From Granulicella mallensis MP5ACTX8 (GTDB lineage: Bacteria; Acidobacteriota; Terriglobia; Terriglobales; Acidobacteriaceae): a stretch of 64,000 nt of DNA. This document shows, one piece after another, positions 10,595 through 28,104 of this stretch. How positions within the stretch are numbered: the first letter of the stretch is position 1; each line of letters begins with the position of its first letter. Location: positions 5,704,001 through 5,768,000 of the forward strand of contig NC_016631.1 of assembly GCF_000178955.2 (NCBI RefSeq), given 5' to 3'. The position numbers were made by a program, and so were the translations under genes. The notes beneath the pieces are model-generated. The model made no database searches, was not told where the DNA came from, and saw only the letters and a list, made by a program, of their open reading frames with translations.

Positions 10595-10812
10595 CGTCAT
10601 CCTGAGCGAAGCACCTCGCGCTTTTGCGAGGTGCGCAGTCGAAGGCCCCCGAGAGTGGTTATCTCACCCACGACGCTGGGACCTTTTCCACCTCGAAAAC
10701 CCAGGCTCGAAGGCTTGAGGTAGAAAGGGTCTGAGAGATATGGGCAAGAGGTTGGCCCTCGGGGTCCTTCGACTCCGCGTCCCAAAATCGGGACGCTCCG
10801 CTCAGGATGACG
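10595..10812. repeat. Long palindromic intergenic repeat, family C (copy 1)
   Basis: It begins CGTCATCCTGAGCGAAGC and ends GCTCAGGATGACG, an inverted pair. Inside are a CCTCGCGCTTTTGCGAGG hairpin and a TCGAAGG / CCTTCGA inverted pair. Related copies lie at 24927 (split by the IS110 element) and 27883. The right end runs directly into the GGAGGGGGC Shine-Dalgarno of the next gene. Confidence 0.85.
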
Positions 10813-24926: not shown

Positions 24927-25139
24927 TGTCATCCTGAGCGAAGCGCCTCGCGCTTTTTGCGAGGTGCGCAGTCGAAGGACCCCGAAGGACTTGATCTCGC
25001 CGATGGTGTTGGGATCTTTCCGGCACGAACGTCCAGGCTCAAGCGCGTGAGGTAGAAAAGAGGTAAAGGGTATAGGCAAAATCGTAACCCTCGGGGTCCT
25101 TCGACTCCGCGTCCCCAAAAGCTGGGACGCTACGCTCAG
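24927..25139. repeat. Family C palindromic repeat, split by IS110 element (copy 2, left part)
   Basis: It begins GTCATCCTGAGCGAAGC and runs to ACGCTCAG at 25139, where the expected GATGACG is displaced. GATGACGATTCTGTGGGG resumes at 26389. Joining the two restores an end matching the copies at 10595 and 27883, which gives a precise empty site. Confidence 0.9.
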
Positions 25140-25235
25140 CGACTGTCTGTGCTGTCAAGAGAGGGTTATGGGAAAGCGGAAAACGATGAAGCCGTTTCCC
25201 TCTTTCCCACAACCTCTGCGGCTGTTGGGATTGAG

Positions 25236-26173
25236 TTAGACGGGGAGCGGTGGTGTTTGGAACTGTTGGCGAACTTGTCTGGCTTTGGCGTTGAGTCGTA
25301 CGAGGAGTTTGTGAGCCAAGGCGATACGAACGACCTTAGGGGGTTTGCCAGCGTCGCGGAGCCGTTGCTGAAAGGCGATGAAGTCGGGTTCGTGACGGCC
25401 TACGACGCTGGCGACGATGAAGAGGATTTCGCGGATGGAGGGGCGTCCGCCACGCACCACACGCCTGCCTTCGCGTTTTCCGCTGTCGCGGGCCAGGGGA
25501 GCGAGCCCGGCCAACTTGGAGATGGTCTTGTTGGACAGGGTGCCGATCTCGGGCATCTCGGCCATGAGCCGGGCCACGGTGCGGTCAGCCACGCCTTTGA
25601 TGGTGCGGAAGGCCTGATCCAATTGCTTCCATAGTGGATCGGCGGCGATGAGGGCGGCGATGGCGGCGGCCAACTGGTCCATCTGCCCCTTCAGGAACGC
25701 CAGCAACTGGTCGATGGCGGCCAGCACTTCGGTATCGGTGACCAGACGGCGCTGGTTCCGTTGCGCTGTGCGCACCTCGGTGAGCTGGCGCAGACGCGTG
25801 ACCTGGGCCCGCAACTGGCGTTGCCGCTGCGTCCCCAGCACGCTTGGCACGGGCTTGCGGACCTCCGCTACCAGGCAATCAGCCCCGCATCGATGGCATC
25901 GGTCTTCTCCGTTACCCCCATGCCTTCGGCGAACTGCCGCACAGACCGCGGGTTCAGAATCGCTACGGCCAGCCCCTCGCTCGCCAGCAAGGCGAACGGC
26001 TGTTGCTCGTAGCCCCCGGTGGCTTCCATCGCCACCAGCTGCACCTGATGGGCACGGCAGAATCCGGCCAGCTCTCCGATCCCTGCCACGCTGTTGTCAA
26101 ACGTCGCTGCCGCTCCCTCTCTGCCGATACGAACCGACAAGCTGAGGGAAGATACATCTACTCCACAAATCAT
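25236..26173 (-). pseudogene. IS110-family transposase (DEDD + Tnp20), one-base frameshift
   Basis: The N-terminal half (26173 to 25868) has the RuvC-like DEDD set: Asp6 in CGVDVS, Glu50 in VAMEATGG, Asp92 and Asp95 in EKTDAIDAGL. It ends early at LIAW-stop. The C-terminal half continues in another frame from VRKPVPSVLGTQRQ to 25236 and contains the helical linker, IKGVADRTVARLMAEMPEIG and the serine-bearing ARDSGKREGRR of the Tnp20 domain. Restoring one base at 25867-25869 (TGGTA-GCG to TGGTAxGCG) gives the usual IAWYAEVRKP, so this is a single-base deletion or a sequencing error. Repaired length would be about 312 residues, normal for the family. Confidence 0.9.
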
Positions 26174-26345
26174 GCGCGTCACGGTGTAACCTGCCTTGTA
26201 TGTGCGATTGCATAGTCTTCTGACTGTTCGGTCGTACCCTGACTTGGGCAGCGGTCCCTGGGCTGAGCGTCGGTGGTTGATCACCTCAGGATGAACGGGT
26301 GCCGTCCGCCCGTGGGGGAACCGATGCCTCGGTTCCCCCCTCTAC
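26174..26345 (-). ncRNA. Candidate bridge RNA of the IS110 element
   Basis: Noncoding sequence upstream of the transposase, read on the minus strand. First comes a strong hairpin (GGGGGAACCGA / TCGGTTCCCCC, plus coordinates 26314-26339). Next is a loop with TCATCCTGAG (26285-26294), identical to the target strand across the core, then a GGTG/CACC stem and ACGCTCAG (26263-26270), complementary to the other target half. Last is a loop with ACAGTC (26222-26227), matching the element's downstream end, and ATACAAG (26195-26201), complementary to the core and upstream end (CTTGTAT). Order and strand polarity are those of target- and donor-binding loops in IS621 bridge RNA. The RNA ends are estimates. 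Confidence 0.75.
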
Positions 26346-26513
26346 AACAGACTCTAACGAATGACTGTTGATCTCCTATAGATACAAGGATGACGATTCT
26401 GTGGGGGAGATGAGAAACAAAAGCGATGAGTGCATTGGTATTTGCTTTCGCTCTGCATCCGCTATCTCCGATGCATCAGGTGCTCCCTGAGCCCTGAGCC
26501 CTGAGCATTTCGA

Positions 26514-26527: not shown

Positions 26528-27868
26528 ATGACTGATAGCAAGAACAAGCCCGCGCCGCGGCCCACCATCAAGGCCGTGCGCGGCACGCGTGACCTCCTTC
26601 CTGACCAGACCCCCCTGTGGAACCGCGTCGAAGCCACCGCCCGCGCCGTCTTTTCGCGCTACGGCTTCGGCGAGATCCGCACCCCCGTCTTTGAAGCCAC
26701 CGAACTGTTCGCGCGCGGCGTCGGCGAAGAGACCGATATCGTCTCGAAGGAGATGTTCACCTGGGAGGACCGCGCCCGCGCGGCCAGCGAAAAGGCCCAG
26801 AATCTGACCCTGCGGCCCGAGTCCACCGCCGGCGTGGTGCGCGCCTACATTGAGCACAAGCTCGGCGAGACAGGCCAGCTACAGAAGCTCTACTACATCG
26901 GCCCGCAATTCCGGCGCGAGCGTCCGCAGCGCGGACGGTACCGGCAGTTCTGGCAGATCGGCGCAGAGGTCATCGGGCCTCAGACCTCTGGCGCGGAATC
27001 TCCCCTACGCGACGCCGAGGTGCTGGAGATGCTTGCCAGCCTGCTCGACGAGCTGGGCATACGTGACTGGAAGCTAGAGCTGAACTCGGTTGGCAACGCC
27101 GAGGATCGTGCACGCTTCAACGTGGCCTTGCGCGAGGCGCTGGCCCCGGTAAAGGACCGGATGTGCCCTGACAACCAGCGCCGCGCCGAGACCAATCCCC
27201 TGCGCGTGCTCGACTCGAAGGAAGAGGCCGACCAGGAGATCATCAACGCGCTGCCGAAGATCGCCGACTACCTGGGCGATGAATCGCGCGAGCACTTTGA
27301 ACAGGTAAAGGCGGCCCTCGACGCCTGTGGCGTGCCTTACCACGTGAATCCGCGGCTGGTACGTGGACTGGATTACTACACGCGCACGACGTTTGAGTTC
27401 ACCGTGACCACCGGCCTCGGCACACAGAACGCGCTGCTCGGCGGCGGACGCTATGACGGACTCTCGGAGATGCTTGGCGGCCCAAAGGCTCCCGGAATCG
27501 GGTTTGCCATCGGCGAGGACCGCCTCATCCTCACGCTGCAGGCGCAGGCTGAGGCCGACGCGGCAGCCAGCGGCATCGCCCCCACAGAGCCGAAGCTAGA
27601 TGTTTACATCGCTCCGCTAGGCATAGCGCAGAATCCTGCCGCGCTCAAACTCGCCCGCGAACTGCGCCGCGAAGGGCTCTCGGTCGAAGTCGGCGATGGC
27701 AGTTTTAAGATCGGCAAGAGCTTCGGCTTTGCGGATAAACTCGCTCGCCACATCATCCTCCTTGGCGAAGACGAGGTCGTCACCAACGTGCTGACGGTGA
27801 AAACCTTCAGCACCGGGGAGCAGGTAAAGGTGAACCGAGACGTCCTCGCAGACACCCTACGCGGCTAA
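26528..27868 (+). CDS. hisS: Histidyl-tRNA synthetase
   Basis: Class II synthetase charging tRNA-His, 446 residues, cytosolic. Motif 1 region: GTRDLLPDQTPLW and FGEIRTPVFE. Motif 2: LTLRPESTAGVVRAY and QFRRERPQRGRYRQFWQ. Histidine-specific motif: LVRGLDYYTRTTFEF. Motif 3: GGGRYDGLSEMLGG and PGIGFAIGEDRL. A C-terminal anticodon-binding domain follows (LDVYIAPLG to the end). Length is normal. It stands alone on the plus strand just after the IS element, whose host repeat forms its upstream region. Confidence 0.97.
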   Translation: MTDSKNKPAPRPTIKAVRGTRDLLPDQTPLWNRVEATARAVFSRYGFGEIRTPVFEATELFARGVGEETDIVSKEMFTWEDRARAASEKAQNLTLRPESTAGVVRAYIEHKLGETGQLQKLYYIGPQFRRERPQRGRYRQFWQIGAEVIGPQTSGAESPLRDAEVLEMLASLLDELGIRDWKLELNSVGNAEDRARFNVALREALAPVKDRMCPDNQRRAETNPLRVLDSKEEADQEIINALPKIADYLGDESREHFEQVKAALDACGVPYHVNPRLVRGLDYYTRTTFEFTVTTGLGTQNALLGGGRYDGLSEMLGGPKAPGIGFAIGEDRLILTLQAQAEADAAASGIAPTEPKLDVYIAPLGIAQNPAALKLARELRREGLSVEVGDGSFKIGKSFGFADKLARHIILLGEDEVVTNVLTVKTFSTGEQVKVNRDVLADTLRG

Positions 27869-27882
27869 TATCGTCACAGAAG

Positions 27883-28104
27883 CGTCATCCTGAGCGGAGC
27901 GTCCCGGCCTTTGGGACGCGGAGTCGAAGGACCCCGAAGGTTGCAATCTTGCCCTCTCCCTTCGCACCTTTTCCACCTCAAACGCTCGAGCCTGGGCTTT
28001 CGGGGTGGAAAAGGTCCCAACCTCTTGGGCGAGATAAAGTCCCTCGGGGTCCTTCGACTCCGCACCTCGCAAAAAACGCGAGGCGCTACGCTCAGGATGA
28101 CGCC
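27883..28104. repeat. Long palindromic intergenic repeat, family C (copy 3)
   Basis: It starts CGTCATCCTGAGCGGAGCG and ends ACGCTCAGGATGACG. Internal GTCGAAGGACCCCGA and TCGGGGTCCTTCGAC are inverted. The order of the inner hairpins is reversed relative to copy 1, so this is an inverted insertion of the same element. Confidence 0.85.

What the first reader, a model, noticed from the sequence alone, without database searches (positions are those of the whole stretch)
26174..26345. Noncoding strip of the IS110 element reads as a bridge RNA whose guides match its own target and ends
Read on the transposase strand: a 5' hairpin; loop 1 with TCATCCTGAG (10/10 identical to the target strand across the CT core) and ACGCTCAG (8/8 complementary to the other half); loop 2 with ACAGTC (matches the downstream element end) and ATACAAG (7/7 complementary to CT plus the upstream end). 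Order and polarity are those of target and donor guides in IS621. I found these by comparing the reconstructed empty site and the element ends with the noncoding region. Four independent matches in the correct order are unlikely by chance.
Basis: partly seen in the sequence, partly recalled or inferred. Interest (0 to 1): 0.92.

Follow-up and report, generated by a model that had tools for sequence, protein, structure and literature searches.

The report
Bridge RNA of an IS110 element
A jumping gene in a soil bacterium carries a small RNA whose two loops spell out where it lands and what its own ends look like; this is a clear new example of a mechanism described in 2024, here on a copy whose enzyme gene looks broken.

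Summary
The noncoding strip at 26172-26342 (minus) has the anatomy of an IS110-group bridge RNA. The four guide matches exist as written. A covariance model built without any sequence from this genome finds the strip as its only hit below E 1 in the window (E 2e-27). Across 16 distinct target loops, guide letters follow each element's own flanks (138.1 of 160; 77.3 +/- 8.3 after re-pairing; 0 of 20,000 reach it). Scoring every column window of the RNA alignment picks the same two places. All four copies found in the genome sit in the same kind of palindromic repeat, split at the same CT. Two corrections: the end (GAG) of the '10/10' guide is not conserved, and the 6-letter left donor guide is a changed form of an 8-letter guide kept in relatives. 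The transposase here is frameshifted, yet a copy differing by one base sits at another site, which suggests mobilisation in trans by an intact cousin. Verdict: new member of a known kind; RNA expression and activity are untested.

The parts
25140..26388 (-). IS110-group element, 1249 bp counting one CT core
   Evidence: Four copies in the genome with the same junctions
26172..26342 (-). Bridge RNA (covariance-model limits)
   Evidence: Held-out model R2: 134.4 bits, E 2.1e-27; next hit E 1.4
26314..26339 (-). 5' hairpin of the bridge RNA (main part)
   Evidence: Helix 1: 9 of 11 pairs show changes on both sides across 18 sequences, 94.9% of cells paired
26288..26294 (-). Left target guide TCATC+CT (literal match runs on to 26285)
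   Evidence: best of 296 column windows
26263..26269 (-). Right target guide CGCTCAG, pairs with CT+GAGCG
   Evidence: best of 296 column windows
26222..26227 (-). Left donor guide ACAGTC, shortened match compared with ACAGTCGC of relatives
   Evidence: loci whose right end begins ATAGTCG have ATAGTCGC in the guide (L086, L089, L090, L093)
26195..26201 (-). Right donor guide ATACAAG, pairs with CT+TGTAT
26389..26393 (-). Left half of target site (TCATC), outside the element
25133..25137 (-). Right half of target site (GAGCG), outside the element
26387..26388 (-). Left CT core
25138..25139 (-). Right CT core
25140..25146 (-). Left donor ACAGTCG (right end of the element)
25153..25158 (-). -35-like TTGACA at the right end; would join TATCTA at 26384-26379 with a 17-base spacer if the element circularises
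   Evidence: Read; promoter activity inferred
25868..26173 (-). N-terminal transposase frame (DEDD/RuvC-like), ends at TAG after ...DAGLIAW
   Evidence: PF01548 3.3e-15
25236..25850 (-). C-terminal transposase frame, in another frame
   Evidence: PF02371 1.5e-14

Best explanation
This is an IS110-group insertion sequence with a bridge RNA in its left noncoding end. In the excised circle the two ends join and build a promoter (TTGACA, 17 bases, TATCTA). That promoter transcribes an RNA of about 170 nt. Loop 1 pairs with both strands of the target: TCATC-CT through the left guide, CT-GAGCG through the right guide. Loop 2 pairs with the element's own joined ends (ACAGTCG-CT-TGTATC). The DEDD/serine transposase then exchanges strands at the shared CT, placing the element in the end of a palindromic genomic repeat. 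Shown here by sequence: the element limits, the target, the RNA structure, guide-target covariation and the donor guide match. Inferred from IS621: the promoter, the circle, the transcript and the recombination steps. This particular copy probably cannot make full-length transposase and, if it moves, depends on the intact cousins in the same genome (inferred).
For: Held-out covariance model hit. Guide-to-own-target matches 138.1 of 160 against 77.3 +/- 8.25 re-paired, 0 of 20,000. Column scan on 17 sequences: left guide 69 of 85 matches, next best window 46 of 80; right guide 79 of 85, next best 47 of 80. RNA structure: 94.1% of cells paired, 14 of 35 pairs with changes on both sides, 0 of 500 shuffles reach it on any of five measures, slid versions pair at 27.1 to 51.1%. 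Four of four genome copies in the same kind of site. The transposase of sister copy L007 matches solved IS621 (7.7e-28) and ISCro4 (6.7e-30) transposases. Both Pfam domains are present in the window copy. Donor guide changes with the donor end in L086, L089, L090 and L093. R1 also gives weaker hits in the distant IS110 loci, some directly upstream of the transposase match (e.g. L085 1311-1481, E 8e-4).
Against: No Rfam match at gathering score, and only chance-level ones on the other strand below it. The models find real IS621 only weakly (E 9e-4 in a 2.9-kb search with R2; E 0.11 with R1). The re-pairing test does not correct for shared ancestry; the column scan does so only in part. Some guides mismatch their flanks: own matches are 11 of 16 at -5 and 9.6 of 16 at -4, and the -1 position carries no signal (P 0.12); the G095 left guide reads CC where the core is CT, and that of L089 also ends CC and is one base longer. 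This copy's left donor guide differs from its donor end at three of nine positions. The right donor guide's unbroken fit ranges from 3 to 7 letters among relatives. No transcript was observed.
Confidence: 0.95

Rival explanations
1. The conserved strip is a transposase leader: a cis-regulatory RNA structure controlling translation, and the matches to target and ends are chance or copied flank.
For: The RNA ends at the transposase start codon (26172 against ATG at 26173), so it may also influence translation.
Against: A leader would not change with each element's own insertion site.
Confidence: 0.03
2. Target choice is by protein recognition of the palindromic repeat end, and the RNA merely resembles it.
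For: All four genome copies use one repeat family, so within this genome the two readings cannot be told apart.
Against: Related transposases (59-77% identical over the best segment for the full-length loci used here) use different targets, each following its own RNA loop.
Confidence: 0.02

Closest known systems
IS621 and its bridge RNA (E. coli; Nature 2024, PMC11208160 seen in passages; PMC11208158 seen only in the listing with the start of its abstract)
   Same: RNA in the left end upstream of the transposase; 5' hairpin; target loop then donor loop; guide order; CT core; TGTAT left end; insertion into palindromic repeats; DEDD plus serine transposase.
   Different: Left target guide 5+2 (+1) letters against IS621's nine (7+2); right target guide of about 7 letters against IS621's 4 (the paper says some orthologues have longer ones); different 5' hairpin sequence; target TCATC-CT-GAGCG against ATCAGGC-CT-AC; transposase of this copy frameshifted.
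ISCro4 (PDB 9t56)
   Same: IS110-family transposase, closest solved protein by sequence.
   Different: Only the protein was compared.
IS1111 group
   Same: Part of the IS110 family, with bridge RNA (PMC11208160, passage).
   Different: Its RNA lies mostly in the right end; here it is in the left end.

Membership tests
IS110-group bridge RNA element | DEDD/RuvC-like plus Transposase_20 domains | tested here: met
   PF01548 and PF02371 in the window's two frames; sister copies L006/L007 have one open frame over the whole length, and L007's protein matches IS621 over residues 4-291
IS110-group bridge RNA element | Structured ncRNA in the left end, same strand as the transposase | tested here: met
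IS110-group bridge RNA element | Loop 1 covaries with the target on both sides of the core | tested here: met
IS110-group bridge RNA element | Loop 2 pairs with both donor ends | tested here: met
   Left donor guide fits 8 or 9 letters in most relatives, 6 of 9 in this copy; right donor guide fits 7 letters here, 3-7 unbroken in relatives. Donor ends vary little, so covariation rests on one change (ACAGTC/ATAGTC)
IS110-group bridge RNA element | Short core (CT) shared by target and donor | tested here: met
   Same CT at both junctions in 4 of 4 copies
IS110-group bridge RNA element | Junction promoter formed on circularisation | tested here: inconclusive
   TTGACA-17-TATCTA read from the joined ends; activity not tested
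IS110-group bridge RNA element | RNA is transcribed and directs recombination | not testable with these tools
   Needs RNA-seq and a recombination assay
Rfam families | Match at gathering score | tested here: not met
   0 matches in the window; two sub-threshold hits, both on the other strand

The most novel reading that the evidence does not exclude
The window element is non-autonomous. It has a frameshifted transposase and a donor guide that no longer fits its own end well, but it still jumped after breaking, because an intact cousin about 76% identical in the same genome shares the same target guides and the same donor ends and supplies protein, and perhaps RNA, in trans. Internally deleted or truncated relatives (L035, L036) in other Acidobacteria would make this a recurring bridge-RNA parasite relationship.
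Probability: 0.5. Interest if true: 0.5.

Novelty: new member of a known kind. Interest (0 to 1): 0.38.

Why it matters
It gives readable bridge-RNA guides in a cluster of elements that spans Acidobacteria and Alphaproteobacteria and keeps nearly one donor sequence while changing target loops, which is natural retargeting. It offers compact systems with about 12 bp of predicted target specificity. The two broken copies offer a natural test of whether bridge-RNA elements work in trans.

Tried and rejected
Rfam at gathering and relaxed thresholds gave nothing useful. The raw model match of IS621 is too weak to count as family proof by itself. The first fold of the donor loop by RNAalifold (CGAC/GTCG) was replaced by a stem that pairs GUCACG with CGUGAC; that choice used my recalled knowledge of IS621. 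A programmed frameshift was considered: by eye I see no usual slippery heptamer at TGG-TAG, and L018 is shifted the other way nearby, so simple breakage is likelier, but low-level frameshifting is not excluded. Segmental duplication as the source of the second copy was considered: flanks outside the repeat differ, so transposition is likelier. Three paper searches (listings only) and passages of PMC5900883 ('IS110' occurs 0 times there) showed no description of this element; ISfinder was not available, so I do not claim it is unlisted.

Rows left out of the guide test: the more distant IS110 loci (L024-L027, L034, L057, L064-L085), partial, duplicate or re-fetched loci (L005-L007, L021, L022, L028, L029, L031-L033, L037, L039, L040, L042, L044, L046-L056, L058-L063, L097), and L020 and L036 (no right flank). 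L023 was left out of models R1 and R2 because of an insertion. A looser plasmid search (E 1e-35) listed 772 records, the best place of each below 60% identity; none beyond L086 was used.

Full report
WHERE IT IS. The window is bases 5704001-5768000 of a 6,237,577-base genome in one contig. That length equals the one given in the abstract of the Granulicella mallensis MP5ACTX8 genome paper (PMC3910553; abstract and outline, passages, where the body gives another figure), so the host is very probably that soil acidobacterium; this is my inference. The element lies on the minus strand, 26388-25140, beside a gene whose product reads like a histidyl-tRNA synthetase (ORF 26528-27868; name from recall, no family search run).

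THE OBSERVATION. The element is bounded by TCATC-CT|TGTATC and ACAGTCG-CT|GAGCG. In 20,000 dinucleotide shuffles of the strip none held all four core guides and one held three or more. The region 26174-26388 folds better than shuffles (z -3.45).

COPIES IN THE SAME GENOME. A DNA search found four: the window copy, one differing by a single base over 1249, and two cousins at 76%. All four interrupt the same kind of palindromic repeat at the same CT. The 12-letter site TCATCCTGAGCG occurs 225 times in the genome, against 1 for the reversed control pattern. Of the 100 places that call listed, 68 form 34 inverted pairs with starts 202-222 bases apart; the other 125 places were not listed. One intact repeat in the window, 10597-10810, folds as a long hairpin (z -9.07). 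The element thus lands in the ends of an interspersed palindromic repeat, as IS621 does in REP elements (PMC11208160, passages).

RELATIVES WITH OTHER TARGETS. One scan of genome contigs gave 20 loci. Genome searches had matches in 9 of 200 (order, E 1e-30), 8 of 396 (phylum, E 1e-40), 8 of 8 reached through my loci (E 1e-30), 6 of 397 (E 1e-60) and 1 of 249 (E 1e-60, the query's own genome only); searches also count the centre genome, and the sets overlap. A plasmid search at E 1e-60 gave one record. From these I examined 37 loci by script; 36 gave a left end by pattern and 1 (L021) did not. They hold 18 distinct target loops, 16 with both flanks known.

COVARIATION OF GUIDES AND TARGETS. At five positions on each side of the core, guides match their own flanks at 138.1 of 160 positions, against 77.3 (sd 8.25, maximum 115.4) in 20,000 re-pairings; with wobble pairs 147.1 against 93.4. 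The innermost left position is nearly constant and carries no signal (P 0.12); -4, -5 and right position 4 are weaker (P 0.02, 0.01 and 0.02). To check that this is not just kinship, I scored every usable 5-column window of the RNA alignment, in both senses, against the flanks (17 of the 19 aligned sequences, those with both flanks). The left guide is the best of 296 windows for the left flank (69 of 85; next 46 of 80) and the right guide is the best of 296 for the right flank (79 of 85; next 47 of 80). For example, CT-CCGGG in the five G095 copies, CT-CACCC in four of five G676 copies (CT-CTCCC in the fifth) and CT-CAGGA in L008 go with right guides whose reverse complements read CTCCGGG, CTCACCC and CTCAGAA.

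DONOR LOOP. The left end TGTATC (TTTATC in L020) and the right end ACAGTCG-CT are nearly constant. In L086, L089, L090 and L093 the right end is ATAGTCG-CT and the guide is ATAGTCGCT. In the window copy the guide reads ACAGTCAGA and fits only six of nine; of 36 loci, 33 read ACAGTCGC or ATAGTCGC, and L004 reads AGAGTCGC. IS621's own guide ends in CA too (ACAGTATCA in L098), so a mismatch at the last core letter is normal. The right donor guide fits CTTGTAT in the window; among relatives its unbroken fit is 3 to 7 letters, and the IS621 paper describes a discontinuous pairing there (passage).

STRUCTURE. On 18 sequences, 94.1% of cells of my stated structure pair; 14 of 35 pairs have changes on both sides; none of 500 shuffles reaches the observed value on any of the five measures; slid versions pair at 27.1 to 51.1%. 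The structure was drawn by me with knowledge of these sequences and of IS621, which favours it on the percentage. A model from 16 relatives without this genome (R2) finds 26172-26342 minus with 134.4 bits, E 2.1e-27, next hit E 1.4. R1, built with the window copy, finds the four genome copies and a fifth place only at E 1.75. R2 on IS621 gives E 9e-4 at the right place. R1 also gave weak hits on the opposite strand (window 26311-26409, E 0.17) and in distant IS110 loci.

THE PROTEIN. PF01548 and PF02371 lie in different frames in the window. The sister copies have one open frame of 368 codons, and the transposase part of L007 matches solved IS621 and ISCro4 transposases. The window copy and its twin share the shift after ...DAGLIAW and the altered donor guide, yet sit at different sites. 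The simplest reading is that they were moved by the cousin's machinery; that is inference, and a move before the break followed by gene conversion is not excluded.

MECHANISM AND STATUS. I commit to the bridge-RNA mechanism (0.95). Shown by sequence: limits, target, RNA fold, guide-target covariation. Not shown: transcript, circle, recombination. Kind: established in 2024, so a new member. Small differences from IS621: shorter left target guide, longer right target guide, and the base after the core in the left guide equals the first right-target base in 17 of 17, which may instead reflect pairing between the two guides inside the RNA.

Noticed in passing
window 10597-10810, 27885-28100, 24929-26393 (interrupted by the element): Interspersed palindromic repeat of about 214 bases with inverted TCATCCTGAGCG ends; 225 exact end sites in the genome.
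   Followed up: partly
window 25868-25850: One-base frameshift between the two transposase domains, shared with the copy at genome 5501879-5503133; L018 is shifted in nearly the same place in the opposite direction.
   Followed up: partly
L035 from 1297, 742 bases: Internally deleted relative that keeps both ends and the RNA, in the same kind of target.
   Followed up: partly
L036 1296-1863: Truncated relative whose transposase frame runs at an internal CT directly into target-like GAGCG; the contig ends close by, so misassembly is possible.
   Followed up: partly
L023 about 1411-1460: Duplicated 18-base unit carrying a second copy of the left donor guide in the Microvirga element.
   Followed up: no
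window 26287 (base after the core in the left guide): This base equals the first right-target base in 17 of 17 sequences.
   Followed up: partly
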